Below, in pieces: positions 1,751 through 28,528 of a DNA stretch of 64,000 nt (the first letter of the stretch is position 1; each line of letters starts with the position of its first letter). The notes beneath the pieces are model-generated. The model searched no databases and had not been told where the DNA came from. It worked only from the letters and a program-made list of their open reading frames with translations. The position numbers and the translations under genes are program-made. The DNA comes from Limnobacter alexandrii. GTDB taxonomy: Bacteria; Pseudomonadota; Gammaproteobacteria; Burkholderiales; Burkholderiaceae_B. The DNA lies in the NCBI RefSeq assembly GCF_005871185.1, contig NZ_SWKN01000008.1, positions 62,001 to 126,000 of the forward strand, written 5' to 3'.

Positions 1751-1797
1751 AACGAACCGATTCAAGCCAACCTGGTCGGCTTAGATCAGTTCGTTTT
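1749..1797. terminator. possible bidirectional terminator between convergent genes
   Basis: Inverted repeat AAAACGAAC (1749-1757) / GTTCGTTTT (1789-1797) with a nested AAGCC/GGCTT pair. It spans the 30-base gap between two convergent genes and has A-run and T-run edges, so it could end transcription both ways. The right arm lies inside the last codons of the minus-strand gene. Confidence 0.4.
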
Positions 1798-4243
1798 GCT
1801 GGTTCAAATACACCTCGGGTGAAATCCGGAATGCCGCGCCAGTAGGGCAGGCACGAACACACGCCGGGCCACCTTCTTTGCCGTGGCACAGGTCACACTT
1901 GTACGCTTTCTTGATCGAGTTTGCATCGTACTTGGCTGGGCGTTCACCCAAAGGGCCACCCGCGCCAAACAGCAGCCAAGACAACAAGCCGGTTTTTCTG
2001 GGGGGCGGTTTAACCCGCAATTCGATGGCGTTGTAAGGGCAGTTTTTGGCGCAGTTGCCACAACCAATGCAGGTGTCTGCAATCATCACTTCGCCTTTTT
2101 CATTTCGGCGAATGGCATCGGGTGGGCAGTCTTTCATGCAATGTGGCTGTTCACAATGTCGACAGGAATGTGCCAAGTGAATGTTCTGGAAGGTGGGCCC
2201 AGCGTCGCGGTCCAGGCGCGGTATTCCATCGTGTGTTTCTGCGCAGGCACGCTCGCAATTGTCACAATGCACGCACAGGTTCTCATCAATCACCAAGGCG
2301 TTGGTTGCATCTCCCAAACCTTGCTTCATCAGGAAGTGAATCAAATCGCTTTCGCGTTTCGCAGTGCTTTCCCGGAAAATGGCATCGTGAACCCGTTTGC
2401 CAATTTTGGCCTGCAGGGCTTTTTTCCAATTGCTGTTTTTGCTCAGTACGTCGATCACCGCGTCGGCCTGAATCAACAGCACTTCAGTCAGTACCGTCGC
2501 GGTACACGTTGTCTGTCGGTCTGTTCCATCGACCAGGTCAATTTCCCCAACATAGCTGCCTGCGGACACATAAGAAAGCACCGAATCCTGATCATCAATC
2601 AACTTGGACACTGCAACAGATCCGCGCCGAATCAAATGCAAGCCATCGGTTTTGTCGCCTTCACTGAACAGTTTTTCACCCCGTACATAGCGGGTCACGC
2701 TGATGCCTGAGGCAATCAATTGTTCGATTTCATCAGGCTCAAGTTGCGGTGCAAGGTGAGTCGACAAGGCGCGGCGCACGAATGTTTCGTCGAGAGTACG
2801 GCGCACCGCATCCACCGAGGCAATCAGCTTCAGCATGGCCTTGCGGGGCGTTTCAATCAACACGCAGTTTTCACCTGCATACACCGTGGCAGTGCGGCGT
2901 CGACCGGAGATCAGGCCCATCTCACCAAAGTAATTGCCTGTCTCGAGGTTGAGAATAAATGGCTTGCCTTCCTTGTTCACCAATTCAATGCCAACGCCAC
3001 CCTGCACAATCGCAAAGAAGGTGCTGGTGTAGTCACCTTTGTGGAAGATGACAGAACCTTTCTTGGGTTGGTGAAGCGTTGATTCCAGCATGAACTCACG
3101 CAATTGAAGGCGGGTCATCTGGTTGAACAGGGGAACATTCTCGAGGATCATATCGAGCACGGCCGAGACGGAAACATCACCCAAGGGTTTGAATTTCTCA
3201 GCCAGCAGTGGCTCGTCTGCGGGTACCACCGGCAAGCCCATGATGGAGTCCACTACCTCATGGCCTTGGTTCATCGCTTGCTTGATCAAGGGGTAGCCAC
3301 CCAAGGCACCAACAATAAACAAACCAGGCACATTGGATTCATAAGTTTCGCTAAGCGCAGGCACGGCGTTGGGGTCGCTGTTGGGGAATGTCACCCCAAA
3401 ACTTTCTACGAGGCCACGGGGCGGTGTCGCGCCCAAACGGGCGATAATGCGGTGCACAGGCATGGCCTGCTCACCTTCCGGGCCTTTGTAGCGGTAGTTC
3501 AGGGTGGGTTCGCCTTCTTTGGCCTCCGGTATTTCCTCCACTGCACTGGTGCTGGTGTTGTAGAAAATGCGTAAATCTTCATTCCTGTCTGCCGAGAGAA
3601 TCTGATTCAGGTTGCCTTCTTTACACCGGGCAAATTCATCTTTGCGGTTGATCAGCACCACCGTGTTGTTCTTCATCAAGGCGAGTGCGTTTTCAATGGC
3701 GGCATCACCCGCACCAATCACAATGATGGTTTCATTGTTGAACTCGTCAGGGTCAGCCAAGGTGTATTGAACATTCGGAAGATCGTCGCCAGCAGTTCCA
3801 ATTTTTCGGATATTGCCTTGCAGGCCAATCCCAAGAATCACGGTGCGTGCTGTGGTTGTAGTGCCATCCTCGCAGGTCAGCTCGAACGGCCCGGCACCAT
3901 CATTCAGTTTGACTATTTTGCTGACCGTTTTCTTGTACTGAATATTGATTTTTTGATTCAGCAGCTGAGAATCCCAGGTGCCTAAAATGCTTTCCCGCTT
4001 TCCTGCTTCAAAGGACATGCCACTGCGAAGGGGCAAAAAGCCGGGCTCAGCCATCACATGCTTGCCCTTTTGGTACTTGTAAATTGTGTCCGATGCATGG
4101 TTTTCTGATTCGAACAACACGTACTTGCAACCCAGTTGCTGCGCACGCGCCGCGGCGGATAAGCCCGCAGGGCCAGAACCCACAATGGCAATGTCGAGTT
4201 CGGCTGCAATGTCGGCAAACATGGGTTTGAGGTTGTCTTGCAT
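1781..4243 (-). CDS. FAD/NAD(P) oxidoreductase - double cyclic-nucleotide-binding - 4Fe-4S fusion protein
   Basis: Predicted cytoplasmic electron-transfer protein of 820 residues built from three modules. Residues 1-350 form a flavoprotein of the thioredoxin reductase/YpdA type, with the FAD motif GSGPAG near residue 22 and a second nucleotide motif VIGAGDAA near 174. Two CRP-like cyclic-nucleotide-binding domains follow (about 365-475 and 490-605), with phosphate-cassette sequences FGEMGLISGRRRTA and GEIDLVDGTDRQTT. The C-terminus carries ferredoxin-like cysteine clusters: CVHCDNCERAC (about 655), CRHCEQPHCMKDCP (693), CIGCGNCAKNCP (723) and CDLC...CVRACP (782-799). There is no signal peptide. 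It is the last gene of the multihaem operon, 3 bases after the pentahaem cytochrome gene. A role passing electrons between NAD(P)H or quinones and the cytochromes, gated by cyclic nucleotide, is inference. Confidence 0.85.
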   Translation of the reverse strand: MQDNLKPMFADIAAELDIAIVGSGPAGLSAAARAQQLGCKYVLFESENHASDTIYKYQKGKHVMAEPGFLPLRSGMSFEAGKRESILGTWDSQLLNQKINIQYKKTVSKIVKLNDGAGPFELTCEDGTTTTARTVILGIGLQGNIRKIGTAGDDLPNVQYTLADPDEFNNETIIVIGAGDAAIENALALMKNNTVVLINRKDEFARCKEGNLNQILSADRNEDLRIFYNTSTSAVEEIPEAKEGEPTLNYRYKGPEGEQAMPVHRIIARLGATPPRGLVESFGVTFPNSDPNAVPALSETYESNVPGLFIVGALGGYPLIKQAMNQGHEVVDSIMGLPVVPADEPLLAEKFKPLGDVSVSAVLDMILENVPLFNQMTRLQLREFMLESTLHQPKKGSVIFHKGDYTSTFFAIVQGGVGIELVNKEGKPFILNLETGNYFGEMGLISGRRRTATVYAGENCVLIETPRKAMLKLIASVDAVRRTLDETFVRRALSTHLAPQLEPDEIEQLIASGISVTRYVRGEKLFSEGDKTDGLHLIRRGSVAVSKLIDDQDSVLSYVSAGSYVGEIDLVDGTDRQTTCTATVLTEVLLIQADAVIDVLSKNSNWKKALQAKIGKRVHDAIFRESTAKRESDLIHFLMKQGLGDATNALVIDENLCVHCDNCERACAETHDGIPRLDRDAGPTFQNIHLAHSCRHCEQPHCMKDCPPDAIRRNEKGEVMIADTCIGCGNCAKNCPYNAIELRVKPPPRKTGLLSWLLFGAGGPLGERPAKYDANSIKKAYKCDLCHGKEGGPACVRACPTGAAFRISPEVYLNQQNELI

Positions 4244-4246
4244 GGT

Positions 4247-5581
4247 TTACGCTCCCACCGCTGCTTTCAGGGCCAGCAGTTCGGATTGAAATGCTTCGCG
4301 ATCGTAGGCTTCATCATTGCTGAGCAATTTCAGCAAACGGTCCATTTTCGAGTTCACGGTTTGCGCAATGCGCGAATTGCCTTTGCGGGCCAAACCGTTG
4401 GCCACACTGCTGATCGACATATAGGCTTGCTCCGCACCCGCGAAATCGGCGTACTGGTTGCTGGCCGCCATGTTCACAAGGTCTTTCAGAATTTTTTCCA
4501 AAACTTGTTCATTGAATGGCACGGTGGCAACCACTTTGCGCACGGTGTTCAGTTGTGCGTGCAGCACGTTTGCTGCGCGTTCAACTTCAGTAAAGTTGGC
4601 CGCTGGCGAGGTGCTTGAAATGTGCAACTGATTCACCAGTTTGGCAATGTCACTGCTGTGCTGTGGTGCTGCCGCGCGAACAATGGCTTGAACCATGATG
4701 AGGCTGGAGTTATTGATGCGCGCCTGCCCCGGGCTGCGGGCGAGGTCTTTCGACCAGTCTTTCTTGCTCATGGGCGAATGGCAGGCGTGGCAGTCGAACA
4801 TCATCAGTTCAGGCATGATGCCTTGGCGATTTCGCTTCGGGTCAGCAATCAATTCCAGCAGGTTTGCACTGCTGGCGAACTGGCCCATCGCCCAAATTTT
4901 TCCTGCATCATAAGCGCCTTTGCGCTTGACCCAATCCTCATCAATTTTGTAGTGCGGTGGTTCCAGCGCCATGAAGGTTTCAACTTCAATGGAAATACGC
5001 GGGTGGCCTGCACCCATAATTTGATGGGTAATGGGGCGGCTTGAATCGCCCACATGGCAACTGGTACACAGCTTGGCGGCAGCATAGGGGTCGCTGGTGG
5101 GGTATAGGCCATTTTCAATGTTCTTGGCATGGGTGGCTTTCGGTTCGACGTGGGTTTTAATCCACTTTTCGGCTGGGCCATGGCAGGCCTCGCAGTTCAC
5201 GCCATCGCTTTTGTCAAAGCGGGGGCCTTGTTTGCTTGCAGGTACATTGTGGCTGTGGCAATCCAGGCACACCTTGGCTTCGTGTGCCGGTTGGGCTAGG
5301 CCCAGGTTTTTTGCAATGCGTTGCGATTGCGCATTTTTCAACACCGCATAGGCCTGGGTGTGTGGGTCTTCGCGCAGCCAGGTGGTGTATTCATTTTGCA
5401 AAACAGGCGTGGCCGTGCGTTCGGCAATGCTGCCATGGCAGGTGCTGCTGGCACAGTTCACCGTGCCCACCGATTGATGCGGCGACTGGTGTGGCATTGT
5501 TTGGGCGGCACCAGTCAGGGGCATGGTCAGCATGCCTACCAAAAGGGCAAGAGCAGACGAGGATAGAATGCGGGCTGTCAT
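4247..5581 (-). CDS. periplasmic pentahaem cytochrome c (cytochrome c554-like)
   Basis: Secreted multihaem cytochrome of 444 residues with an N-terminal signal peptide ending near GAAQ (about residue 27). Haem-binding motifs are CASSTCH at residue 43 (a CX4CH spacing), CLDCH at 105, CEACH at 130, CTSCH at 172 and CHACH at 264, all in the N-terminal 270 residues; the C-terminal 170 residues are helical-looking and have no cysteine motif. The layout resembles the cytochrome c554 family, which relays electrons in the periplasm. It lies 3 bases from each operon neighbour, so co-translation is likely. Redox partner and substrate cannot be read from sequence. The CX4CH motif is unusual but known in some multihaem proteins. 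Confidence 0.85.
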   Translation of the reverse strand: MTARILSSSALALLVGMLTMPLTGAAQTMPHQSPHQSVGTVNCASSTCHGSIAERTATPVLQNEYTTWLREDPHTQAYAVLKNAQSQRIAKNLGLAQPAHEAKVCLDCHSHNVPASKQGPRFDKSDGVNCEACHGPAEKWIKTHVEPKATHAKNIENGLYPTSDPYAAAKLCTSCHVGDSSRPITHQIMGAGHPRISIEVETFMALEPPHYKIDEDWVKRKGAYDAGKIWAMGQFASSANLLELIADPKRNRQGIMPELMMFDCHACHSPMSKKDWSKDLARSPGQARINNSSLIMVQAIVRAAAPQHSSDIAKLVNQLHISSTSPAANFTEVERAANVLHAQLNTVRKVVATVPFNEQVLEKILKDLVNMAASNQYADFAGAEQAYMSISSVANGLARKGNSRIAQTVNSKMDRLLKLLSNDEAYDREAFQSELLALKAAVGA

Positions 5582-5584
5582 GGC

Positions 5585-8500
5585 TTAGTCCTTTCTGAAA
5601 GCCACAGAATTCACTTTGGGCTTGGGCAAGTAGTTTTCCTTTTCAACCTTGTCAGTCACCGTCCACAAACGGCCATCCGGGCGCAGGTAAAACGCTTCCA
5701 TTTCCTTGCGTGTAAATGGGCGTGAACCAATGCGGCCGAACACCGCAATTTGTCCGCCAGTTTCATCCACCGCACGGTCACGGTCCAGTCCCTTCGACAC
5801 CGACAGCGCCGGGCTTGGCGTTTTGCGCCATGCAATCAATTCAGGCATGGGCGCAGGCGAAAAGCCATAGAACTTGGGCTGGGTGTCTGGCGAAGTCAGT
5901 TGCAACACTTTCAAACCATTCACCCCATCGGCCACATAGGCAAACAACGATGCATTGGTAGAACCCACCACCACATCATGCGCGTCATTCAGTTGGCCGT
6001 CAGCAGTAAATTGTTGGTACACCACTGGCTTGCGTGGGCGTTCAATGTCCACAATCACCAAGCCCTGTTTTTTCGCCGCCACATAGGCGTAGGTGCGTGC
6101 CAGGTACACGCGTTGTGCGTCGGCCAGTGGCACCACTGCGCCGGTGTGTTCGGGCTTCTCTGGGTGGGTAATGTCAATCACTTCCAGGCCTTTTGCTGTG
6201 GTGGCAAACAGGTAACGGAATTGCACCGCAGTTGCGCGGGCATCCTGCAAGGGCAGGGTGGTAATGTGGCGCGGCTTCAAGGGGTTGTTGATGTCAACAA
6301 ACACAAGCCCCTTGGGCGTGGTGATGTAGGCATAGTGCCCACCCAAGGTAATGTGGCTTGCGCCAGTCAGTACCCCGTTTTCATTCCAGGTTACAGCGCG
6401 TTCAAAGAAGTTGTTGCGGGGTTCACCATCGGCCAGCGTGTTCACATTCACTGCAATCAAACCTTCTTCACTGTCGGTGATGAAGGCGTAGTTGTAAATG
6501 GGGTGAAAGGGCTGTTCCATATTGGTAATGCGCATCAAATCGCCCTGGTTTTTCTCGGGGTTGATGGGCTGGTTGGTGGGCAGGGCCATGCAGGTGGCGT
6601 TTTTCGTGGCCACATGGGTGTCGTGGCCCAGCGGGCTGAACGGCGCCGTAATCACGCGTTGCCCATAGCCTTTGTTGGCCACGCTGGCTGCGTCGTAGGC
6701 GCGGAAGCCGCCTTTTCCTTCAGCCACAAACACATACTCGCCACGCAGTTGAAGGCAACTGGCCACGCCTTTGGTGGTGTGGTCCATCAGCGCTGGCACC
6801 ACAGTGTCGGCCAGCTCCCGGTTGCGGTTCAAATGGTTTTGATAGAAATCAGGGTAGGCGTATTTGTGCAAGTAACTGCCCAGCACCGCTTGGGGTTCAT
6901 CCCATTCGGTCACGGTCACTGCTGCAATGTGTTCTGTGCCACCCAGCCAGGCATTGAATCCGATGAAGTTCACGAAGTTGGTGCCCTGTAACAACAGCTG
7001 CGCCATGATGGCGTTGTTGTCATCCTCGCGTGACAAATGGCAATCGCTGCAGGTTTTGGTTTCTTCCTTGCGCTCGGTGTGCGGGTAATGCGGTGCGAAA
7101 GCTTGTGAAGAAAAACCACTGGCTGCAATCGGTGGCTGCTGAATGTAAATACGCTCGCGGTTCGCGTTCATTGACGACAGAATCAAAGCCGAGCTTGAAC
7201 GAATTGGCGCTATGCGGTTGCCTTTCACCGGGCCATGTACGCCAAGCTGGAACATGTCGTCGCGTGCCACTTGCGGGTTGTAGGTGGCGTAATTCCGGGT
7301 TTCTCCACCCTCATAGTGCAGGCGTTCAGTTTTCCAGTTGGCTTGAATGGGCAAGTGGCAACCCGCGCAGCTGGTGGTCCAGCTCAAGTGACAGGTGAAG
7401 CAGGTCATCTTGTCGTTGTCGTGTGCCAGTTCTTTTACGCCCGGGCCCCATTTGCCATCCTGGCCCTCTGCGCCTGCACCCATCAATTTGGCGCGTGCTG
7501 CTTTGGCGTTGTACTCAGGGTGGGCCGGGTTCATGTTGTCTTTCACCAGACTCATTTCCCATTCTTTGTTGGGGTCCAGTGCCGCGCGCTGGTATAGCTT
7601 TCCATCGCGCCACTCGAAACGCTTACGCCCGTCTTGCGTTCGCAATTGGGTCAAATCGCTGCCGCCGGGTGGTGCGGCAGGCCCGCTGGTGCGCAAGGTG
7701 GGGTATTTGGTGGCAGTGCCATGGCAATCGGCACAATCCACTTCAACTGCGGCAGCCACTTCGCCGTAAATGTGGCCATTGCCGTGCATGTCTTGCGCAA
7801 AGTGGCAATCCACGCAGTGCATGCCCACGTCCAGGTGAATGGAGCTTAGGTGTACTGCCTTGTCGAATTTCTTGGGGTCGTCGTCGGCAACAACATTGCC
7901 CTCGGCATCCAGCAATGCGCCTTTGCGGTTGCGCTTGAACACCGCGCGGAAGTTCCAGCCATGGCCATGGTAATCAGCAAACTGGGTGTCTTTCAATTTG
8001 CTGTTCAGTGTGGACACGTTTTTAAGAAACTCAGGGTCGCTCCACTTGCCACGCACCGCCGCTTCTTCGGGGTTGCGATCCAGAATTTCGCGCATTTCCG
8101 AATCGGTGGGGTAGCGTTGCTTTTCTGGCCACATGTGCGGCGCATCGCTTTCGTAGTCCCACATGATGTAACCGTAATAGCTGTTCACAAACACGTTAGG
8201 CTGGTGCATATGGCACACCATGCACTGCGAGCTTGGAATGGCGCGGGTGAATTCATGCTTCACCGGGTGGCCACTTTCATTTTTTGCAATGGTTGGGTCA
8301 ATGGTTTGTGTGGTGCCATCGTGACCAAACTTGGCGTAGGGTCCTGCGTGCTTTGGGTCGCGGTCGTTGGTGTAAATGGTGTGGCAACCTGTACAGCCTG
8401 ATGAACGGTAATCGCCCGGTTGCTCATTGGTGCCCAGAAACCACAGGTGCGGGTCGTTCAAACGGGTTTTCGTCACGTTAATCAAAGGTACCGCAATTCG

Positions 8501-9484
8501 CTGGCCCGTGCCAGGACCCCGGTTAGACTGTTTGATGTCGGGCCGCCCTGGTTCATCCAGGCGCTGAATTTGACCCAGCACGTTGGGCAAGCCCACCTCG
8601 GGAAATATGCTGTTAATCACCTTCCCACCGCGTTCAAATACGCGGAATATGTCGCCCGGGGGCGTGGTTTCCCACGCGGGCAATGGCGCCAGTTCATTGA
8701 GAATACCCTTGTGAACAAACAGCTCGTTGTTGGCCTCCACCGGGTTTTTCAGCAAACCAGGTTGACCATCTTGCGTGTAAGCCTCGCCAAGAATGTAGCG
8801 CTTGTAAGGCAAGATTCCATTGTTATAAGAAGCACCGCCCCACAGCATGGCCGAGGTGCTCATCAGGCTACGTTCCTGGGCTTGAATGACCGGTAAATGA
8901 CATGCACCACAGGCCTCGCGTGCAACACGCAAATCGCCCGGGTTGATGAAACGAATGTAAGCAGGGTGCTCTTTGTTCAGCTTGGCATAAGAACGTTTTG
9001 GGTTGGCTGACGAAGGGTAGTTCCAGAATTTCTCGTTGCGTGGCGCAATGTGCGCTTTGTCCAGCGCGGCACGGTATTCGGGTGCAAAGCCTTTTTCACG
9101 CGCAGCGCGGGTGTGGTCGTATGCCAACGAGCCTTGCTTGTCTTCTTTGCCGTTCCATTTCACGGTGGCGTCACCGCCATGGCAATCGGTGCAGCCCAAC
9201 ACCACGCCAGGGTTGGCATGCATGGTGTGTTGGTCGGTTTGTGTGTGGCAGGTCATGCAGCCTTCGGTTTTTGCAAAGGCCTGTTGCGCCGTTTGGCGTT
9301 CAGGCGCTGCAGGCGCCATGGTGTAACTTTTTTCAGGCAGCTTTTCACTGGCGGCATGAGCCACCGGGGCGATACCCAGAGTGGAAACAGCGGCCACTGC
9401 GAAACCCAATGCAAACAGCCAGCCCTTCCAGCGATTGTTGCTGGCGGGCTTTGTTGGAGGAGCAATGGCGGTATTCAAATTCAT
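5585..9484 (-). CDS. giant decahaem cytochrome c with C-terminal LVIVD beta-propeller
   Basis: Exported cytochrome of about 1299 residues. The ATG at 9484, about 10 bases after an AGCAGG ribosome site, is preferred to the TTG two codons upstream. After a long signal peptide (hydrophobic stretch, then APVAHAAS near residue 45) there are ten CXXCH motifs: CMTCH, CTDCH, CGACH, CTGCH, CMVCH, CVDCH, CADCH, CFTCH, CAGCH and CSDCH. From about residue 880 the protein changes to repeats such as GLVFVDINNPLKP, GLEVIDITHPEKP and GLVIVDIERPRKP, typical of LVIVD beta-propellers. There is no lipobox, so location is periplasmic or beyond the outer membrane through the neighbouring barrel. It is probably the main electron-transfer or terminal oxidoreductase subunit of the operon; substrate unknown. 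Confidence 0.85.
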   Translation of the reverse strand: MNLNTAIAPPTKPASNNRWKGWLFALGFAVAAVSTLGIAPVAHAASEKLPEKSYTMAPAAPERQTAQQAFAKTEGCMTCHTQTDQHTMHANPGVVLGCTDCHGGDATVKWNGKEDKQGSLAYDHTRAAREKGFAPEYRAALDKAHIAPRNEKFWNYPSSANPKRSYAKLNKEHPAYIRFINPGDLRVAREACGACHLPVIQAQERSLMSTSAMLWGGASYNNGILPYKRYILGEAYTQDGQPGLLKNPVEANNELFVHKGILNELAPLPAWETTPPGDIFRVFERGGKVINSIFPEVGLPNVLGQIQRLDEPGRPDIKQSNRGPGTGQRIAVPLINVTKTRLNDPHLWFLGTNEQPGDYRSSGCTGCHTIYTNDRDPKHAGPYAKFGHDGTTQTIDPTIAKNESGHPVKHEFTRAIPSSQCMVCHMHQPNVFVNSYYGYIMWDYESDAPHMWPEKQRYPTDSEMREILDRNPEEAAVRGKWSDPEFLKNVSTLNSKLKDTQFADYHGHGWNFRAVFKRNRKGALLDAEGNVVADDDPKKFDKAVHLSSIHLDVGMHCVDCHFAQDMHGNGHIYGEVAAAVEVDCADCHGTATKYPTLRTSGPAAPPGGSDLTQLRTQDGRKRFEWRDGKLYQRAALDPNKEWEMSLVKDNMNPAHPEYNAKAARAKLMGAGAEGQDGKWGPGVKELAHDNDKMTCFTCHLSWTTSCAGCHLPIQANWKTERLHYEGGETRNYATYNPQVARDDMFQLGVHGPVKGNRIAPIRSSSALILSSMNANRERIYIQQPPIAASGFSSQAFAPHYPHTERKEETKTCSDCHLSREDDNNAIMAQLLLQGTNFVNFIGFNAWLGGTEHIAAVTVTEWDEPQAVLGSYLHKYAYPDFYQNHLNRNRELADTVVPALMDHTTKGVASCLQLRGEYVFVAEGKGGFRAYDAASVANKGYGQRVITAPFSPLGHDTHVATKNATCMALPTNQPINPEKNQGDLMRITNMEQPFHPIYNYAFITDSEEGLIAVNVNTLADGEPRNNFFERAVTWNENGVLTGASHITLGGHYAYITTPKGLVFVDINNPLKPRHITTLPLQDARATAVQFRYLFATTAKGLEVIDITHPEKPEHTGAVVPLADAQRVYLARTYAYVAAKKQGLVIVDIERPRKPVVYQQFTADGQLNDAHDVVVGSTNASLFAYVADGVNGLKVLQLTSPDTQPKFYGFSPAPMPELIAWRKTPSPALSVSKGLDRDRAVDETGGQIAVFGRIGSRPFTRKEMEAFYLRPDGRLWTVTDKVEKENYLPKPKVNSVAFRKD

Positions 9485-9500
9485 CAACAAACAACCTGCT

Positions 9501-11726
9501 TTAGAAACTCAAAATCACGTTAAACAGAAAGGAGTAAGGGTCCTTGTCTTCCGGAAACAATTCTTTGTAGCCCTTGCCAGGCAACAGCTTGGCAAACGAC
9601 CCGTTCACCACCACGTTTTGCGAGAAGAAAGGCCGGTACTGAAAACCCACTGATGCATCAATGCCCAAATCAGTGGACGGTGGGCGTTGCTGGCGCAAAG
9701 TACCCAGCACATTGGTGTTGTCGAATTCAAGCTTGTTCAGGTTGGCCACCAAACGCAGCTCGGGCAATACATCAATATCGGCACCAACACCCACCAACAA
9801 CAGGCCTGGGTTGATGAAATTGGATTGCCCTTGTTCCTTGCTTGAACGAAGTGAGGGCAGCACGCCATTTCTGCCCGATAGAAACACGCCGCCGCCACCG
9901 ATCAAAGGAATATTCTGACGGATGAAAAAGCTGGTGTCGGCCCCTGCAAATTGGGGGTTCTCGAATATGGCATCAAAGCCTTCCGCCTTTCCGTCGAACG
10001 GGTCTTCATCGCCCGATGCATACAGGAAGCTGCCGCGCAAACGGAACCAGTCAAAGTCGCGCGACAATTCCGTGGCATGAAAGAATGCATCAATGTCTTG
10101 TTCGCGCTGGGCAAGCGGGTGCCTGTCTGTTTTACCTGTGGCGTAATAGGTGGAGGTGGTGATGTTCATGCGGCCATAGTGGCCGTCACCGCTGAGACCA
10201 AAATAGTCCACATGGTAGCCAAAGGGTTTTTGATCGCCCAATGAAGAGGGGCGCGCTAAAAAGCCGTTGGCATCGAAGTAACGTTCACCGTCCTCATCGT
10301 TGCGGTTGTGAATATAAGAAACCTGGCTGGTGAAACCCAAAAACGGAAAGTCTTGCCGGTACAGATTGGCCACGAAAAAATCATCGTCGCGCAGGTCTTG
10401 ACGAATGTCGTTCAAGCCACTGTTGGTGTCTTTTTCAACCCGCTTGAAATAGCCGATGTTGTACTGGTAAATGTTGTTGTTGCGGTTGCCAAACAGGCGA
10501 ATGCCCATGGGCAGGTCTTGGAACAGAAAGCCCCGGAAATCGCTGATGAAGGGCTGAATGCCCACGCGCAAGCTGTCGAAATCATAGCGATCCGACACGT
10601 TGCGAAGGTGCACGTCCACAAACGCTTCCTGAATGCCCACAAATCCTTCCCGGCGAACATCACCGGAAGAAGATGCGATTTTCAGCAGGCGGTCTTCATT
10701 CACCCGCACATCGGTGTAGTTGAACACCGGGGTTAAACGAAATTCGTAGTCTGGTGGTTTGAAGGTGGTGTTGCCCTTGGTCAGCGACAAACTGACGATC
10801 AGGTTGTGCGCAAAAATGGATTGCTCACCGTCGCCAAAAATATTGGCTTGCCCAGAAGTGCTCGATGTGGCTGGTGGCACTGGCACAGGAAAATTGCGTT
10901 GCTCGTACAGCGTGTCGGCAATAATACCCAGATTAAAAAACCAGTCGGGCCCCAGTGTGTTTTGCAACACAGGCAAGTCGCCCTTGATCACGTTCTGGTT
11001 GTAGGGGTCGAACAGCGGAAACTTGAAACCCAGCGACTGCATGATACGCCAGCGATCGGGCACTGCCACGGTTTCACGGGGCAGGTTGGGCAAGGGTGGT
11101 GGCACCTGGCTGGGGTCGATTACCGGAATTGCAATGTCGCGCGGCACAATGGGTGTGTCGCGCCCGGGAATGGCCCGTTGCACTTGCGGTGTTTGCGGAA
11201 CCAAACCCGGTGTGGCTGTGCTCGATGGGCGTATGCCTGTGCCGGGCTGGTCTTGCAACACATCGGCCGAAAATGCGCGGGGTGCAAACACGCCCAAGGC
11301 TTGTTCGCCGTATTGGCCCGTGCCTTGTTGAACCCAGCCGTCGGTACTGCCCAAGAGGCTGTCCTGAATGCGCACGCGATACCAGCCGTTCTTTTCTTCA
11401 AACGCATCGACCAACTGGCCCTTGAAAAACTCGCCAATGGCGCGCGCGTTTTTTTGTGGCTGTGAATACACCACTGTTCGGTTGTCGAAAACCTGCAGCA
11501 ACACCAGCGGGCGTTCCGCGTTTTCCAGTTCAGCGATTTCCGGTATACCCGCCACTTTGCGGGAAACCCGCTCAACAGTTTCCGATACCTGGGCAACAAT
11601 GCTGGGCTTCGCTTCACTTCGAATATCAGCCCGAATTTGTGCCATGGCGGGCAAGGGCAGCAAGCCGGCCAAAATCAGCCCAACAGCCAGGGGTTTCAAA
11701 CGCATGATGTGGTTGTTCTTGTTCAT
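9501..11726 (-). CDS. predicted outer-membrane beta-barrel protein with N-terminal SH3-like domain
   Basis: Exported protein of about 741 residues. The ATG at 11726 overlaps the stop of the upstream lipoprotein gene (ATGA), which favours it over the GTG four codons earlier. A signal peptide ends near PAMAQ (residue 30). A bacterial SH3-like segment follows (about 75-135, with GEFFKGQLVDAFEEKNGWYRVR and ending in GWVQQG), then a Pro-rich linker (about 160-220), then about 500 residues of alternating, aromatic-rich, strand-like sequence that ends in Phe (NVILSF), the usual C-terminal signature of outer-membrane barrels. No haem or CXXC motif is present. In this operon it could form the pore that lets a multihaem cytochrome conduct electrons across the outer membrane, like MtrB in porin-cytochrome systems; that is analogy, not homology seen here. 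Confidence 0.7.
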   Translation of the reverse strand: MNKNNHIMRLKPLAVGLILAGLLPLPAMAQIRADIRSEAKPSIVAQVSETVERVSRKVAGIPEIAELENAERPLVLLQVFDNRTVVYSQPQKNARAIGEFFKGQLVDAFEEKNGWYRVRIQDSLLGSTDGWVQQGTGQYGEQALGVFAPRAFSADVLQDQPGTGIRPSSTATPGLVPQTPQVQRAIPGRDTPIVPRDIAIPVIDPSQVPPPLPNLPRETVAVPDRWRIMQSLGFKFPLFDPYNQNVIKGDLPVLQNTLGPDWFFNLGIIADTLYEQRNFPVPVPPATSSTSGQANIFGDGEQSIFAHNLIVSLSLTKGNTTFKPPDYEFRLTPVFNYTDVRVNEDRLLKIASSSGDVRREGFVGIQEAFVDVHLRNVSDRYDFDSLRVGIQPFISDFRGFLFQDLPMGIRLFGNRNNNIYQYNIGYFKRVEKDTNSGLNDIRQDLRDDDFFVANLYRQDFPFLGFTSQVSYIHNRNDEDGERYFDANGFLARPSSLGDQKPFGYHVDYFGLSGDGHYGRMNITTSTYYATGKTDRHPLAQREQDIDAFFHATELSRDFDWFRLRGSFLYASGDEDPFDGKAEGFDAIFENPQFAGADTSFFIRQNIPLIGGGGVFLSGRNGVLPSLRSSKEQGQSNFINPGLLLVGVGADIDVLPELRLVANLNKLEFDNTNVLGTLRQQRPPSTDLGIDASVGFQYRPFFSQNVVVNGSFAKLLPGKGYKELFPEDKDPYSFLFNVILSF

Positions 11727-13705
11727 GGTGTCGGGCACACGTTTTGTTCACTGCTGTTGTTGAACGGAGTTTGCGGGCACTGCACATACTTCAAAAATTC
11801 GCCGGAGTTGGACAATTCATTGGCGGTGAGCAAGGTTGATGGGAATGGGCGCATGGCGCTGCCCACTGCTGCAGCCCCGTTGATTACGCCGAGGTAACCC
11901 ACCATGTCATCCTGGTCCACACCATCGCCCGATACCCCGATTGCACCCACCAGTGTGTCGCCTTTGTAAATCGGGAAACCACCGGGGAAAATTTGCAGCC
12001 CGTTGGAGAAACGGCTTTGTCGACCAGCGGGAATATTGGCGTCGTCAACACAGGTGAGCGCTGCCGACGGTGAAAACTGGTTTGCCGCGCGGCCTGTGCC
12101 CGTGAGGGTGCCTAGTACCTTGTTGGTCACAATGTTCAGCTGAAAGCCAACGTTGAAAGGGCTCCACTGTGAAATGGGGGTTGAAAGCGGGCCTGTTGGG
12201 GTACCCACTTCACCGTCGGGAAACAAGGGGCGGTGCACATTGCCAATTGCGCGCGCTGAATAAGCCGCCGAGCCGTTCAAGGCATTTGAAGTTTGTGTGA
12301 AGAAGGTATTCATGGCGTTTGCAAAGGCGGCATGGTTGCCTGCATCAATTGCTGTGAAATCAGTCAAGGCTTCAGCCGAGCTGAATGCAAGTGCGGAGCG
12401 CGCTTTTTGAACAGACACATCAGTGCCAAAAATAGGCGCATCCGATGATCGTACCAAGCCCAAAACCTGGCCTGTGGTGTCCACCACACTAACAGTCACT
12501 TGCGCGGCTGCTCCCAGAGGAATACGAATTTGTGCTCGAGCCCGGTTGGCAATCTTCATGCCTTCAACCAGAATGTTTTGCACCTCAGGCTGCGTCAGGT
12601 TACCGCCAGCGCTTGGAGGGAAACGAACCGAGGTGTTGTCTGCCGGGTTGGTGATTAAGGTGAAGGTGTCCAGGCCATTAAAGGCGGGCGCCGTGGTGGC
12701 CACATAACCAGATTGGCTTGTGCCATACGATGTTCCTGCAATCACACCCGCAACTGCTTTGTAGCCAGCCACCGCAACAAAGCTTCCATTGCCAGCCAGC
12801 GATGCAGCACCTGCCACGGCGGGCGTGGTGTTGGAAAACTGGAAGGTTTGTCCGTTTGCAGTAATGCGGTTTGCCCGAATTTGCTCAGGCGCACGGAAGG
12901 CCTCGGGCAGTGCGGCAAAGGCAATTTCTTCTTCAAGGTCAACTTCATTGGTCAGAATGTCACGGTCCAGTCCGTACACGCCCTGCGTGCCAGCATCGGT
13001 CGATGCGATCACGCCAATACCACCTACCACCCGGCCTTCCTGATAAATCGGAAAACCACCAGGGTCTGCGGACAAACCCAAGGGCGATCGTTTCGGGCCA
13101 ATGGTGGCATTTTGAGAAAGCCACACATTCAGATCAGAGCAGGGCAGTTGGCTGAACTGCACACCATACAGTGGGCCGCTGGGCTGGCCTGTTTCACCCG
13201 GTTGAAAAAATTCCTGAACAATTTGGCTGGCCGTTCGCGTGCTGAAAGCATTCCCTGTTGAAGACAGGTAAGCCCCGGTAATGGCTTTGGCAATTGCAGC
13301 CAATTCGCTGGGCACAGACTGCCCATCCAGACCCATGCCGTCGGCACCACTTAGTCCACTTGTAATGATTACGGAGGGGCTGGAATTGGTCATTTGATAA
13401 ACCGCCAGCACATTGCCCACCCGGTCGGTGATGGCAATGGTTGATTGCACGCCGCGAGAAATGGATGCCTGCACCGCGCGGGCCACAATGTCGTTGACCT
13501 CTGCAATGGACAGGCTTTGCGTGCCCAAGGGTTCAATATTGAAACTGGGTTCAGACGAACTTCCGCCACCACCCCCACCACCGCAAGACACCAACACCAA
13601 AGGCGTTGCAAGGCAAACCGCCACCGCCATGGCGATTCGTTTCAGTTTTGTTGCTGTGCCTGTTACGGCATTAGGGCCGCTTACTGCATCTGTGCGTTTG
13701 CGCAT
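11723..13705 (-). CDS. lipoprotein with two HbpS/GlcG-type (haem-binding-like) domains
   Basis: Predicted lipoprotein of 660 residues. The signal peptide ends in the lipobox LVSC (Cys about residue 41), followed by a seven-glycine spacer. Two copies of a HbpS/GlcG-like fold are suggested: one starts with LSIAEVNDIVARAVQAS and contains GGFPIYQEGRVVGGIGV, the second contains GGFPIYKGDTLVGAIGV. This family (often annotated as haem-binding protein or GlcG) binds haem or small ligands in some members. It lies between two multihaem cytochrome genes and overlaps the barrel gene by 4 bases, so it may handle haem or stabilise an outer-membrane complex. It is unusual to see the domain twice in one lipoprotein. 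Function is inferred only from family and context. Confidence 0.75.
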   Translation of the reverse strand: MRKRTDAVSGPNAVTGTATKLKRIAMAVAVCLATPLVLVSCGGGGGGGSSSEPSFNIEPLGTQSLSIAEVNDIVARAVQASISRGVQSTIAITDRVGNVLAVYQMTNSSPSVIITSGLSGADGMGLDGQSVPSELAAIAKAITGAYLSSTGNAFSTRTASQIVQEFFQPGETGQPSGPLYGVQFSQLPCSDLNVWLSQNATIGPKRSPLGLSADPGGFPIYQEGRVVGGIGVIASTDAGTQGVYGLDRDILTNEVDLEEEIAFAALPEAFRAPEQIRANRITANGQTFQFSNTTPAVAGAASLAGNGSFVAVAGYKAVAGVIAGTSYGTSQSGYVATTAPAFNGLDTFTLITNPADNTSVRFPPSAGGNLTQPEVQNILVEGMKIANRARAQIRIPLGAAAQVTVSVVDTTGQVLGLVRSSDAPIFGTDVSVQKARSALAFSSAEALTDFTAIDAGNHAAFANAMNTFFTQTSNALNGSAAYSARAIGNVHRPLFPDGEVGTPTGPLSTPISQWSPFNVGFQLNIVTNKVLGTLTGTGRAANQFSPSAALTCVDDANIPAGRQSRFSNGLQIFPGGFPIYKGDTLVGAIGVSGDGVDQDDMVGYLGVINGAAAVGSAMRPFPSTLLTANELSNSGEFLKYVQCPQTPFNNSSEQNVCPTP

Positions 13706-13808
13706 CGACTTCTAACTCGCTCATCTTTGTTTTTCAATGGACCTGCTTGCCTGCAAGTCCCCAGTTCACTGCTGGTCTGTCTACTCAAGTTACTGCGTCG
13801 AATGGCGA

Positions 13809-15275
13809 TTACTTCGCTGCCAGTTCTTTGTTATGTATATGGTATTCGTGGCACACGCCACAGTCCGATTGAACTTTGTTCAGCGCGGGTTTGCTGCCTG
13901 CATGGCAAGTTTGGCAACCGTCAATTGCGGGCATCAGCACATCGCTGGCTTCCTCGGACTTGCTTGCTTTGTGGCAACTTTCGCAACTTTCAAAGGCGTG
14001 GGCTTTGTGGTCGAACTTGGCCATGGGCATCCACGGGTGTGCCGGGTTAATGTCTGCAATTTCGTACTGCGGCATTCTGGAGCCCGAAGTTTTTGTGTTG
14101 CCCAAACCATCCACCGCTTTCACCTCGTGGCACACCGCACAGGCGGTATTTTCAAACAATTCCACTGTTGCAAAAGAGGCCTGCGCACGCGGGTTGCCGC
14201 TCAGGTTTCGAAGGTTGGAGCGGTTCGGGTTTTTCTCGCCGGGGCGTGCACGCAGCACCGCGCGTTGTGCATTCACTTTGTTGCGTTCTTCGGGGTGCAG
14301 TGCAAGGTAACTGTAAAACTCTTCCACTGTGCTTAGCACCGCATCAACCGGTCCGTGGGGCACCTGGCGATCCGGCAAAGCCGGTTCAAAACTCAGTTTG
14401 TGGCACTCTTGGCAGTGGCTTTCCATGCTCAGTGTTTTAAACCCGGTTGCCGTGTCTGCGGGTTCGTGGCAGTTGGCGCATTCCATCACCACTTTCTTGC
14501 TCGGGCTGTCGATGCCCTTGGGGTCAAGGTGAACGTCGTGGGGGAATTTCAGGCTGGTTTTTTCCACAATCGGTGTGTTGGCCGCCATGCGAATTCTGCG
14601 TAAATCGCTGGGTTCTGGCCCTGTTGCAACAGTAATTCGAAATGCCGGGTGTTTGTCGCCCGCAAAGTCGCTAACCGCAAGTGTTTCAGTTTTTGGGGCC
14701 ACGGTTTTGATGTCGGTGTGACAAGCCGCACAATCGGCACCCACAAAATGTTTGTTCTGCTCTGCAAGGCTCTCGCGCCCTTTGTGGTCGCGGTGGCAGC
14801 TAGCGCAGCGGCCCTCTTCAAAAGAAGTATCCGGCACGGTTTGCTCGGCCACATGCAGCCCCATATTGCTGTGGCACACCAGGCAGCTTTCATCCTTCAC
14901 ACGCGAAAAATTACCTGCGTGGCAAGCCTGGCAATCACCTTCAAGGTTGGCGTGGGCTGAAGCCAGTGGGCCCGGGTTCCAAATCGAATCCAATGCCAGT
15001 GCCGTTGTGTTGCGTGTGCTTGAAACCGGTGTGCTTTGTAGGCTGGGGTGTGCATTCACAGGCAAATTTTCAATAGCCACGGTTTGTGGTTTTTCATCTG
15101 TGCTTGTGGGCTCAACACCAAAAAGCTCGGGTGCTTGCATGGCCAGCAAAGGCAACACAAGAAATGCGAAAAGAATGGGTACAAAAAGAATCCATGACAG
15201 CGGGCGTTTCAGCCCCAGGGGTTTTTGCAGTGCCTGTTGCTCACGTTGAAGCGGGCTTTTTTCTTGTTCGGCCAT
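13809..15275 (-). CDS. membrane-anchored decahaem cytochrome c
   Basis: Cytochrome of 488 residues anchored by one N-terminal membrane segment (about residues 25-45) with the rest in the periplasm. Ten CXXCH motifs are visible: CQACH, CLVCH, CASCH, CAACH, CANCH, CQECH, CAVCH, CESCH, CQTCH and CGVCH. Additional histidines near the motifs would supply distal ligands. It is the second gene of the operon, 6 bases after the cytochrome b-like gene, which suggests a quinol dehydrogenase pair: the membrane protein takes electrons from quinol and this cytochrome carries them into the periplasm, as NapC/CymA-type proteins do in other systems. A 103-base gap without a recognised feature separates it from the next gene. 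Confidence 0.85.
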   Translation of the reverse strand: MAEQEKSPLQREQQALQKPLGLKRPLSWILFVPILFAFLVLPLLAMQAPELFGVEPTSTDEKPQTVAIENLPVNAHPSLQSTPVSSTRNTTALALDSIWNPGPLASAHANLEGDCQACHAGNFSRVKDESCLVCHSNMGLHVAEQTVPDTSFEEGRCASCHRDHKGRESLAEQNKHFVGADCAACHTDIKTVAPKTETLAVSDFAGDKHPAFRITVATGPEPSDLRRIRMAANTPIVEKTSLKFPHDVHLDPKGIDSPSKKVVMECANCHEPADTATGFKTLSMESHCQECHKLSFEPALPDRQVPHGPVDAVLSTVEEFYSYLALHPEERNKVNAQRAVLRARPGEKNPNRSNLRNLSGNPRAQASFATVELFENTACAVCHEVKAVDGLGNTKTSGSRMPQYEIADINPAHPWMPMAKFDHKAHAFESCESCHKASKSEEASDVLMPAIDGCQTCHAGSKPALNKVQSDCGVCHEYHIHNKELAAK

Positions 15276-15281
15276 GTTCGC

Positions 15282-16097
15282 TTACCAGTAAATGAAAACA
15301 GACAACACGTGTGCAATCAGCGCTGCCAACAAACCAAACGACAGGGGCACGTGCACAGACAACCAAAGTTCAAGCCAATACCGCAAGTGATAATATCGGC
15401 GCAATTGTTTCAAAGCGCGCAATCGCTGCACCTGGTTTTTGTAAATATCTGAAAGGCTGTCCACCCGCGTCATCTCCTGCTGCAGGTATTCAATCGCTTT
15501 TTCGGTGGCACAGTTTTTCACAGTTCCCTTGCGCTGGCTTCTGCGGTCTGGGTAAATGTTTTGCTTGTGCGAAGAAGCGATAATTCGCCCCACCAGGTCA
15601 GCAGAATTTTTGACCAGTTTTTGAGCTTCGCGGTCGAGCGTTTGTATTTGCTCCACAATTTGTTCCGGGCTTTGTCGGTTCAACACGTTCGACATTTCGG
15701 TGGGGTAACGCAAATAAAAGCTAAGCCCCCACACACCTGTGCCAATCGTTGCCATGGTCAACACATAAGCTAGGGAATGCACGTTCCAGCCAATTTGAAA
15801 ACCGGTGTGCAGTGTAGCCACCACCGACAGGGCCAGCCCCAAATAAATATGTGCTGAAACCCAGCCGCGCAAGTTGCCCGTTTCATTGGCGTATTGGCGC
15901 TTGCGAACCCCAAACCACATCAGCCAAAGAATGAGCAGGGCACCAATGGTTCCCAGGGTGTAACCCAGCCAGGTTCCGCCATTGGCATTAATTCTTGGTT
16001 GATCAAAAAGGTAGGCAAACGATGAAACGAGTGTCAGCAACAAGGCCCACTTCAGGAAAACAAATCGTTTGTAGTTGAACAGGTTGTCCTGAATCAT
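15282..16097 (-). CDS. cytochrome b-like integral membrane protein (probable quinol-linked subunit)
   Basis: Inner-membrane protein of 271 residues with about five membrane segments (near residues 13-32, 44-63, 83-105, 112-135 and 248-270). Histidines inside or at the ends of helices (SAHIYLGLALSVVATLHTGF, NVHSLAY and HVPLSFGLLAALIAHVLSV) are candidates for b-type haem ligands. A basic, Gln-rich soluble loop lies between helices four and five, about residues 140-245. It is the first gene of the multihaem operon, directly before the anchored decahaem cytochrome. An entry point for quinol electrons is the likely role. I cannot place it in a precise cytochrome b family by eye. Confidence 0.65.
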   Translation of the reverse strand: MIQDNLFNYKRFVFLKWALLLTLVSSFAYLFDQPRINANGGTWLGYTLGTIGALLILWLMWFGVRKRQYANETGNLRGWVSAHIYLGLALSVVATLHTGFQIGWNVHSLAYVLTMATIGTGVWGLSFYLRYPTEMSNVLNRQSPEQIVEQIQTLDREAQKLVKNSADLVGRIIASSHKQNIYPDRRSQRKGTVKNCATEKAIEYLQQEMTRVDSLSDIYKNQVQRLRALKQLRRYYHLRYWLELWLSVHVPLSFGLLAALIAHVLSVFIYW

Positions 16098-18787: not shown

Positions 18788-18789
18788 CG

Positions 18790-19482: not shown

Positions 19483-19500
19483 CGGGTAAAAGGCAAAACA

Positions 19501-19674
19501 ATGATTCTTGATGCATGGCAAACAATTTGGGCTTGTGTGGGTTTAAGCCTTTTGGTTTTGTTGTTGGATGGCGTGTTGGCTGGCCGTGCAGGCCCCAGCA
19601 AAAACGATTTGGTTCGTCAGCAAAAGCGCGACAATCGAATGGCAGCAGTTGGCAAGGGAGCAGGCAATGAGTAA
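19501..19674 (+). CDS. ccmD: haem exporter small subunit CcmD
   Basis: A 57-residue protein between ccmC and ccmE. It has a single membrane helix (about residues 8-23, TIWACVGLSLLVLLLD) followed by a basic cytoplasmic tail (RQQKRDNRMAA). Size, topology and position match CcmD, which holds CcmE to the CcmABC complex. Its stop overlaps the ccmE start (ATGAGTAA). Sequence conservation in CcmD is weak, so position is the main argument. Confidence 0.8.
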   Translation: MILDAWQTIWACVGLSLLVLLLDGVLAGRAGPSKNDLVRQQKRDNRMAAVGKGAGNE

Positions 19675-25268: not shown

Positions 25269-25346
25269 AGGGCTCAGTTGGTTGAGGGGCTTCTAGGAGT
25301 GATGTTCGGATAAATGGATATCGCCGTTATTGTTCGATAAAACTAG
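25243..25346. other. probable attI region of the decayed integron
   Basis: The stretch between the LexA box and the first cassette is where attI lies in integrons. A junction core is proposed at GTTACGT (25346-25352): it resembles GTTATGT, the complement of the inverse core ACATAAC that ends the first cassette. The first cassette would begin at 25347. No other attI binding repeats were recognised. Confidence 0.4.
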
Positions 25347-25384
25347 TTACGTAATTTCGAGTTCAACGCATTTGGAGGAAACTA

Positions 25385-25861: not shown

Positions 25862-25866
25862 GAGCC

Positions 25867-25926: not shown

Positions 25927-25967
25927 TTTCAACCTCATTCCGCAGCGTAGTTTTTGGCAACCATAAT

Positions 25968-26867: not shown

Positions 26868-26895
26868 CTCAATTGCAAAAAACCAAGGGGGAACC

Positions 26896-27951: not shown

Positions 27952-27957
27952 TTTGGC

Positions 27958-28527: not shown

Positions 28528-28528
28528 G

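What the first reader, a model, noticed from the sequence alone, without database searches (positions are those of the whole stretch)
1781..16097. Seven-gene multihaem electron-transfer operon with 25 haem motifs and a predicted outer-membrane barrel
In transcription order: b-type membrane protein, anchored decahaem cytochrome, double HbpS lipoprotein, SH3-barrel, decahaem-propeller cytochrome, pentahaem cytochrome, FAD/CNB/FeS protein. The parts form a possible path from quinol or NAD(P)H through the periplasm to or across the outer membrane, similar in logic to porin-cytochrome conduits but with different parts. Haem motif counts were made by eye: 10+10+5. The operon lies head to head with the ccm genes that would mature it. 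I do not know a characterised system with this gene set.
Basis: partly seen in the sequence, partly recalled or inferred. Interest (0 to 1): 0.82.

Follow-up and report, generated by a model that had tools for sequence, protein, structure and literature searches.

The report
Seven-gene electron-export operon, possibly signal-gated
A strongly conserved set of seven neighbouring bacterial genes looks like a wire that carries electrons from inside the cell out through both membranes, with built-in switches that may respond to messengers such as cAMP; if so, many ordinary aerobic bacteria can send electrons out of the cell on command.

Summary
Confirmed: seven minus-strand genes at 1781-16097 with 10, 10 and 4+1 haem motifs.

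Best reading: a trans-envelope electron conduit. NAD(P)H, FAD and four [4Fe-4S] clusters (gene 7); a two-haem-b membrane protein (1); an anchored decahaem (2); a periplasmic pentahaem (6); then a probable outer-membrane barrel (4), an ExtM-like decahaem-propeller (5) and an HbpS lipoprotein (3). The inner half is homologous to PCC4-like clusters, a kind known from prediction only; I found no account of the outer half or the whole set.

New: both cyclic-nucleotide cassettes of gene 7 are nearly invariant in 67 homologues, and CHASE2 cyclases adjoin the set in several lineages. Many gene-2 homologues appear to carry an FHA domain (the window's does not); elsewhere PP2C/FHA or type II secretion genes adjoin. 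I infer signal-gated electron export.

Not shown: direction, acceptor, gating, barrel structure (prediction failed). A new variant of a known kind.

The parts
15282..16097 (-). Gene 1: inner-membrane protein with two WX3HX13H motifs (H83/H97 and H249/H263), predicted two-haem-b protein of the PCC3/PCC4 'IMP' kind
   Evidence: both motifs in 67 of 67 homologues, SGXXG in 64 and TGXXG in 3 (window TGVWG); hhalign E 1.4e-13 to a PCC4-like IMP
13809..15275 (-). Gene 2: decahaem c-type cytochrome with one N-terminal membrane anchor (by eye); homologues often have a longer N terminus with an FHA domain, the window copy does not
   Evidence: FHA PF00498 in L017 and L085, not in L018 at E 0.01
11723..13705 (-). 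Gene 3: HbpS-like lipoprotein (lipobox LVSC followed by a Gly-rich linker)
   Evidence: sequence read by eye; PF03928, 1e-21, 4 stretches
9501..11738 (-). Gene 4: signal peptide (by eye), SH3 domain and probable outer-membrane beta-barrel ending in F
   Evidence: C-terminal aromatic in 86 of 86; no structure obtained
5585..9490 (-). Gene 5: exported decahaem cytochrome (ExtM-like haem half) joined to an LVIVD-repeat propeller; the most conserved protein of the set
   Evidence: hhalign E 1.7e-35 to ExtM-like proteins; mean pairwise identity 0.66 over 41 loci
4247..5581 (-). Gene 6: exported pentahaem cytochrome (4 CXXCH + 1 CX4CH), Cytochrome_C554 family
   Evidence: 4+1 in 62 of 62
1781..4243 (-). 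Gene 7: cytoplasmic FAD/NAD(P) oxidoreductase domain, two cyclic-nucleotide-binding domains, four [4Fe-4S] cluster sites
   Evidence: conserved residues in 67 homologues
23..1750 (+). CHASE2 + class III nucleotide cyclase (cut at the window edge), convergent with gene 7, 31 bp away; proposed source of the ligand of gene 7
   Evidence: same architecture beside the set in other lineages
16227..23023 (+). ccm genes (System I cytochrome c maturation: ccmI, fused ccmAB, ccmC, ccmE, ccmF, ccmG, ccmH), divergent from gene 1
   Evidence: Pfam for ccmI, ccmAB and ccmC; ccmE-H named from place and sequence; ccmI near the set in 18 of 91 loci

Best explanation
The operon encodes one trans-envelope electron conduit. 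In the cytoplasm gene 7 takes electrons from NAD(P)H through FAD and four [4Fe-4S] clusters. Gene 1 passes them across the inner membrane through two stacked b haems, as NOX/ferric-reductase proteins do. The membrane-anchored decahaem (gene 2) and the periplasmic pentahaem (gene 6) carry them to the outer membrane. There the barrel (gene 4), the ExtM-like decahaem-propeller (gene 5) and the HbpS lipoprotein (gene 3) deliver them to an acceptor at or outside the surface. Flow is gated from inside: a CHASE2 cyclase makes a cyclic nucleotide that binds the two CNB domains of gene 7, and in many relatives an FHA domain on gene 2 adds phospho-threonine control. Shown here: gene content, co-occurrence, co-variation, conserved motifs, homology of the inner half to PCC4-like clusters and of gene 5 to ExtM-like cytochromes, and recurring neighbours. 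Inferred: order and direction of electron flow, crossing of the outer membrane, and gating. My own odds: trans-envelope conduit 0.75; NAD(P)H-coupled 0.6; outward 0.55; cyclic-nucleotide gating 0.4.
For: Unit: in 9 further genomes of the order, 6 neighbourhoods are complete with the same order and the other 3 are cut or split by contig ends without contradiction; of 91 loci 48 hold all seven and 17 hold six; all 11 of 398 sampled genomes with gene 5 have genes 1 and 6; distance matrices of the seven correlate at r 0.67-0.89, permuted maximum 0.23. Inner membrane: two WX3HX13H motifs in 67 of 67. NAD(P)H end: NAD(P) glycines 67/67, FAD glycines 64/64 with 3 gaps, R200 66/67, 16 cluster Cys 67/67; in the PCC4-like cluster L138 the gene-7 homologue lacks the FAD domain and an FNR-type reductase gene of another family lies in the cluster. 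Outer membrane: C-terminal aromatic in 86 of 86 gene-4 ORFs; gspE and gspF beside the set in 8 of 91 loci (Pfam-checked in L071). Gating: CNB1 Glu 66/67 and Arg 67/67, CNB2 Glu 60/67 and Arg 67/67; CHASE2 cyclases; FHA on gene 2; PP2C with FHA genes. Maturation: ccm adjoining.
Against: No structure. Only 5 of 60 gene-4 members hit Alginate_exp. The amphipathy test gave the window's gene 4 z -0.4, while three annotated outer-membrane controls gave 1.3-2.0. Gene 5 (0.66) is far more conserved than gene 2 (0.34), which suits a substrate-specific enzyme better than a plain wire. The named carriers (Duganella, Parahaliea, Steroidobacter, Sphingobium and others) are, from general knowledge, mostly aerobic heterotrophs not known for extracellular electron transfer. 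A cyclase is near in only 9 of 91 loci, at 1 bp to 7 kb, and no chance expectation was computed for any neighbour. The window's own gene 2 lacks the FHA domain. Cyclases, ccm and type II secretion genes also serve other systems. No binding or activity has been measured.
Confidence: 0.55

Rival explanations
1. A periplasmic reductase system, not an extracellular one. Gene 5 is an enzyme in the periplasm for a soluble substrate (for example an oxyanion, as proposed for Geobacter Ext), the barrel lets the substrate in, and genes 7, 1, 2 and 6 supply electrons.
For: Gene 5 is the most conserved of the seven, with 24 invariant His and 22 invariant Cys over 41 loci. Its haem half is homologous to ExtM-like proteins, and loss of the Ext porin ExtI impaired selenite/tellurite reduction but not Fe(III) citrate reduction (PMC5877670, passages read). 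Gene 5 has an ordinary signal peptide (by eye).
Against: It leaves the lipoprotein with a Gly-rich tether and the type II secretion genes beside the set in 8 of 91 loci unexplained. [quoted passage not shown]
Confidence: 0.25
2. Electron uptake: the same conduit runs inward, oxidising an external donor such as Fe(II), Mn(II) or another cell, and feeding quinone or NAD(P)+.
For: PCC3/PCC4 clusters with this kind of IMP were proposed for Fe(II) oxidation with the quinone pool as partner (PMC5566968, passages and sections 16-18 read). A 10-motif 'forkhead-associated protein' cluster is listed in 27 of 87 iron-oxidising Gallionellaceae genomes (PMC10734462, passages read), which may be gene-2 relatives (not tested).
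Against: Reduction of NAD(P)+ by Fe(II) is uphill and I see no energy-coupling subunit in the set (general knowledge). The named carriers are mostly not known iron oxidisers (general knowledge).
Confidence: 0.15
3. A surface ferric or haem reductase for iron or haem acquisition: the HbpS domains capture haem or ferric iron and the chain reduces it, so the purpose is nutrition and not respiration.
For: HbpS-like domains in gene 3; a NOX/FRE-like pair of HX13H motifs in gene 1; NAD(P)H-driven entry would fit assimilation.
Against: 25 c haems are a large iron cost for scavenging. I recognised no iron-uptake gene among the flanking clusters looked at, but most of those clusters were not annotated, and no Fur site was searched for.
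Confidence: 0.08

Closest known systems
PCC4, predicted porin-cytochrome cluster of Hyphomicrobium and Zetaproteobacteria (He et al. 2017, PMC5566968)
   Same: IMP with two WX3HX13H and SGXXG; an Fe-S protein with PF13247; a decahaem and a C554-type cytochrome with 4 CXXCH; a porin-like protein. In a PCC4-like cluster found here (L138, L139; so named from gene content only) the IMP and the CNB/FeS protein are homologous to genes 1 and 7.
   Different: PCC4 has MHCs of 4, 5 and 10 haems; this has 10, 10 and 4+1. Genes 3, 4 and 5 had no match in the stretches held of L138 and L139. The NAD(P)H-FAD module is fused and YpdA/TrxR-like here, separate and FNR-type in L138.
Geobacter ext selenite/tellurite cluster (extHIJKLMNOPQS; PMC5877670)
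   Same: A porin with 12-, 10-, 5- and 4-haem cytochromes in one cluster; the haem half of gene 5 is homologous to ExtM-like proteins.
   Different: No ExtI, ExtKL, ExtN, ExtO or ExtP hit among genes 1-6; gene 5 has an LVIVD propeller and misses the ExtM cut-off (60.6 against 800 bits).
MtrCAB / MtoAB / PioAB and PCC3
   Same: Same logic: barrel plus multihaem cytochromes and an inner-membrane redox protein; PCC3 has an IMP with the same motifs (PMC5566968).
   Different: Gene 2 scores 26.8 bits against the DmsE/MtrA-family cut-off of 192.2 and 22.5 against 30 for an MtrC/MtrF domain; no MtrB hit; PCC3 cytochromes have far more haems (medians 34 and 21, PMC5566968).
NADPH oxidase / ferric reductase (NOX/FRE)
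   Same: NAD(P)H, flavin, then two b haems held by two HX13H motifs across the membrane (analogy; the motif link is made in PMC5566968).
   Different: Separate subunits, four FeS clusters between flavin and haem, and a c-haem relay towards the outer membrane.

Membership tests
PCC4 (He 2017) | Conserved five-helix IMP with two WX3HX13H motifs and SGXXG | tested here: met
   67 of 67 homologues have both motifs; SGXXG in 64, TGXXG in 3 including the window; profile match to a PCC4-like IMP E 1.4e-13. Helix number judged by eye only.
PCC4 (He 2017) | Three periplasmic multihaem cytochromes with 4, 5 and 10 haems | tested here: not met
   10, 10 and 4+1 here
PCC4 (He 2017) | Fe-S protein with a PF13247 domain (subgroup II) | tested here: met
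   Gene 7: Fer4_11 PF13247, 37.6 bits against cut-off 26.2
PCC4 (He 2017) and other porin-cytochrome complexes | Outer-membrane beta-barrel porin | tested here: inconclusive
   C-terminal aromatic 86 of 86; Alginate_exp in 5 of 60; amphipathy inconclusive; structure prediction failed
PCC3 | Extracellular and periplasmic cytochromes with very many haems (medians 34 and 21) and low-complexity repeats | tested here: not met
   At most 10 haem motifs per protein; repeats not examined
MtrCAB/MtoAB | MtrA-type (DmsE family) decahaem and MtrB-type porin | tested here: not met
   TIGR03508 26.8 bits (gene 2) and 23.8 bits (gene 6), cut-off 192.2; no MtrB family hit for gene 4
Ext (selenite/tellurite) cluster | ExtM cytochrome (NCBIfam equivalog) | tested here: not met
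   60.6 bits against cut-off 800; homologous haem half by profile comparison, so related but not the equivalog
Ext (selenite/tellurite) cluster | ExtI porin, ExtKL, ExtN, ExtO/ExtP | tested here: not met
   None among the NCBIfam hits of genes 1-6 at E up to 0.1; for gene 7 only the best 25 of 154 were shown
Cyclic-nucleotide-binding protein | Phosphate-binding-cassette Glu and Arg in the CNB domains | tested here: met
   CNB1 Glu 66/67, Arg 67/67; CNB2 Glu 60/67, Arg 67/67. The role of these residues is recalled from CAP/PKA knowledge.
Cyclic-nucleotide-binding protein | Ligand binding changes activity | not testable with these tools
   Needs purified gene 7

The most novel reading that the evidence does not exclude
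A widespread, undescribed redox device of aerobic Proteobacteria: an NAD(P)H-driven electron export line through both membranes whose current is switched directly, at protein level, by a second messenger (CHASE2 cyclase to the CNB domains of the redox enzyme) and, in many relatives, by threonine phosphorylation (FHA domain on the decahaem, PP2C/FHA genes beside it). No other electron conduit with a built-in cyclic-nucleotide switch is known to me, and the paper searches showed none in their listings.
Probability: 0.3. Interest if true: 0.88.

Novelty: new variant of a known kind. Interest (0 to 1): 0.72.

Why it matters
If right, hundreds of species, many thought of as plain aerobic heterotrophs, carry a complete and strongly conserved line for sending electrons out of the cell, and can switch it by second messenger. 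That would widen the known range of extracellular electron transfer, give an NAD(P)H rather than quinol entry point, and make a question testable: why do aerobes such as Parahaliea, Steroidobacter, Sphingobium or Limnobacter keep a 25-haem system? Sphingobium herbicidovorans MH (plasmid pMSHV) and the named strains offer isolates for the test.

Tried and rejected
Structure prediction: gene 4 (A8) was accepted once, was unfinished, and failed; gene 5 (A9) was never accepted. No fold search was therefore possible. Amphipathic-strand count: three annotated outer-membrane controls reached only z 1.3-2.0, the window's gene 4 -0.4; the gene-4 family mean (0.54) was the highest of the seven but small, so the test does not discriminate. 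PDB sequence searches: no relative of gene 5 at E up to 1, none credible for gene 4 or gene 1; gene 6 is weakly like cytochrome c554 (E 0.0021). FNR-type sites: none convincing between gene 1 and ccmI. A first regular expression for the CNB cassettes (32 and 31 of 67) was too strict and was replaced by counting alignment columns. A lipobox expression on gene 3 fits many but not all homologues; some start codons are uncertain.

Considered and rejected: chance haem motifs (counts constant across loci); a ccm cluster dedicated to this operon (G003 has lost most of the set but keeps ccm, and the genus also has System II); G348 as a gene-5-free variant (its genes 7-1-2-3-4 run into a contig end).

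Rows dropped: A8 used 59 of the 61 homologues listed plus the window; A9 used 49 of 73. Overlong ORFs of L018 were left out of A2 and A4. The 91 loci include the window, one genome split over two loci, and some contigs met twice (L014 and L028, for example).

Searches returned nothing. In the other listings I recognised no paper that describes this seven-gene set, but I opened only eight papers, as passages (PMC5566968, with sections 16-18 in full; PMC10734462; PMC12442390; PMC5877670; PMC11475568; PMC11976967; PMC9769857; PMC13322032). The second paper that names PCC4 (PMC13264449) was not opened, and no supplement could be read.
Full report
OBSERVATION. Haem motifs are 10, 10 and 4 CXXCH + 1 CX4CH. 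Gene 1 has no Pfam hit over cut-off; its b-type nature rests on motifs. The CXXCH in gene 7 is part of an iron-sulphur cysteine set.

WHERE IT OCCURS. With gene 5 as query, 10 of 200 genomes of the order (the window's included) have it. In the 9 others, 6 neighbourhoods hold all seven genes in the same order; 3 are cut or split by contig ends. A profile scan of 91 loci (window and L013-L102) finds all seven families in 48, six in 17, and two to five in 26. In 398 Pseudomonadota genomes gene 5 is strong in 11, gene 6 in 12 and gene 1 in 15, with 4, 8 and 4 further weak hits; all 11 have both others. The twelfth gene-6 genome (G348) has genes 7-1-2-3-4 running into a contig end where gene 5 should follow. 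Of the three others with gene 1, G200 is cut after gene 2, and G232 has genes 7 and 1 fused, then gene 2, and no genes 3-5 in the 20 kb held; G347 was not looked at further. In the window's genus 14 of 16 genomes have gene 5. One complete genome without it keeps genes 1, 2 and a piece of gene 3 beside ccm, a remnant of loss. The genus is probably Limnobacter: the hit G588:C10:7463-11341 has the same coordinates as L023, titled Limnobacter sp. B02.bin.52. Thirteen plasmid records, 12 of Sphingobium and 1 of Sphingopyxis, carry gene 5 at 55-60% identity.

ORDER AND MODULES. The window and its nearest relatives run 1-2-3-4-5-6-7. Many Gamma- and Alphaproteobacteria run 7-1-2-3-4-5, with gene 6 behind, divergent, or not in the stretch. 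In L082, L085, L093 and L094, and on the Sphingobium plasmid L158 (by product names and order), the set is split into [7-1-2] and [6-3-4-5]; in L059 into [7-1-2-6] and [3-4-5]. So there is an inner-membrane module and an outer-membrane module. Over 38 distinct loci with all seven genes the distance matrices correlate at r 0.67-0.89, permuted maximum 0.23. This shows common descent of the unit and does not prove physical contact.

WHAT THE PARTS SAY. Gene 1: two WX3HX13H motifs in 67 of 67 and [ST]GXXG in 67 of 67, the signature given for the PCC3/PCC4 inner-membrane proteins (PMC5566968, passages and sections 16-18 read). Gene 7: FAD and NAD(P) glycines, four cysteine sets in 67 of 67 and both cyclic-nucleotide cassettes nearly invariant. 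No CXXC was found in the FAD domain of the homologues holding the string GSGPAG (number not printed), so it is probably not a disulphide reductase. Gene 4: all 86 ORFs end in F, Y or W; the figure is 0 of 91 for gene 5, 1 of 69 for gene 2, 1 of 70 for gene 7, 5 of 65 for gene 6, 7 of 76 for gene 3, and 60 of 67 for gene 1, which ends in a membrane helix. The SH3 domain is found in only 14 of 60 gene-4 members. Gene 5: mean pairwise identity 0.66 against 0.34-0.54 for the others over 41 loci, and no PDB relative by sequence.

RELATION TO KNOWN SYSTEMS. Two loci (L138, L139) hold a cluster of a C554-type cytochrome (4 CXXCH in L138, 3 in L139), a CNB/FeS protein, an IMP and a 10-haem cytochrome. 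L138 also has a 481-aa ORF ending in F and an FNR-type NAD(P)H reductase with a 2Fe2S domain. By gene content this is PCC4-like; I could not check it against the supplements of He 2017. Its IMP (E 1.4e-13) and CNB/FeS protein (E 1.3e-47) are homologous to genes 1 and 7; the cytochromes match genes 6 and 2 only weakly (54 and 35 bits in L138). Its gene-7 homologue lacks the FAD domain, and a reductase gene of another family lies in the cluster. Two different NAD(P)H modules in the same kind of cluster are my main reason for an NAD(P)H entry point; He 2017 proposed the quinone pool instead. The haem half of gene 5 aligns with ExtM-like proteins at E 1.7e-35. So the set is partly made of known parts; the outer half and the whole combination are what I found no account of. 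Two leads point to earlier sightings of parts: He 2017 mentions a porin beside an IMP/MHC cluster in Leptothrix cholodnii SP-6 (section 18), and the Gallionellaceae pangenome lists a 10-motif forkhead-associated cluster in 27 of 87 genomes. Neither was tested.

NEIGHBOURS. A CHASE2 + class III cyclase lies 31 bp from gene 7 in the window. Cyclases lie near the set in 9 of 91 loci, at 1 bp to 7 kb. CHASE2 plus cyclase was Pfam-confirmed in all seven others scanned: L013, L035, L073, L091, L093, L101 and the Sphingobium plasmid L158, from Beta-, Gamma- and Alphaproteobacteria; L014 and L021 were not scanned. Substrate-site residues were adenylate-like in the six cyclases where the expression fitted and were not found in L093 and L101 (rule recalled). 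PP2C genes are near in 11 loci and FHA genes in 11, ten loci having both (Pfam-checked in L087). FHA at the N terminus of gene 2 was Pfam-confirmed in L017 and L085, not in L018 at E 0.01; a loose expression fits 37 of 70. gspE and gspF lie near in the same 8 loci (7 titled Alphaproteobacteria or alphaproteobacterial species, 1 Betaproteobacteria), and a prepilin peptidase alone in 3 more; the type II assignment was Pfam-checked in L071. The window's genome has a GspG gene elsewhere. ccmI lies near in 18 of 91 loci, and other ccm genes in L073 and L085. No chance expectation was computed for these neighbours, and related loci are not independent.

MECHANISM. See Best explanation. Shown: homology, motifs, co-occurrence, neighbours. 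Inferred: electron order, direction, crossing of the outer membrane, gating. The strongest point against a simple wire is the very high conservation of gene 5, which suggests a specific substrate.

VERDICT. A real, widespread, strongly conserved system; a new variant of the porin-cytochrome kind, with a possibly new regulatory principle.

Noticed in passing
window 23036-31675: A HipA-like gene (23036-24364) is followed by a low-GC stretch (0.46-0.48 at 24-30 kb) in which the three ORFs scanned (25800, 26896, 28643) have no Pfam hit at E 1e-5: a possible island.
   Followed up: no
window 1-64000: TTGATNNNNATCAA with up to 2 mismatches occurs 53 times against 31.2 expected (largest of 100 shuffles 46); coding bias may explain it.
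   Followed up: no
L154 (G003), L155 (G588), L023: Decay and relocation in the same genus: G003 keeps genes 1, 2 and part of 3 beside ccm; in G588 gene 1 alone lies between the cyclase and ccm while genes 2-7 are on another contig.
   Followed up: partly
L161 6850-10206: Genes 7 and 1 fused into one 1118-aa ORF, followed by gene 2 (9 CXXCH + 1 CX4CH, FHA-like N terminus by eye) and no genes 3-5 in the 20 kb held; G347 has a similarly long frame.
   Followed up: partly
L055, L056, L057, L059, L060, L063, L065, L069, L071, L072, L100 (between genes 2 and 3, or before gene 3): An extra ORF, about 150-180 aa (217 as called in L057) and probably exported, lies before gene 3 in 11 loci, mostly with alphaproteobacterial titles; no Pfam hit in the one tested (L071).
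   Followed up: no
L158 (Sphingobium herbicidovorans pMSHV): The set on a megaplasmid lies beside a CHAT-domain gene, a CHASE2 cyclase, a two-partner secretion gene with a very large neighbouring ORF, and metallophosphoesterases.
   Followed up: partly
L159 (Sphingopyxis indica pMC4): Only the outer module (genes 6-3-4-5 by product names and order) is in the 32 kb shown of this plasmid; where its inner module lies was not checked.
   Followed up: no
window genome G000: C8 (ccm) and C1:923975-925990 (ResB): The genome and its genus carry both System I (ccm) and System II (ResB) cytochrome c maturation genes.
   Followed up: partly
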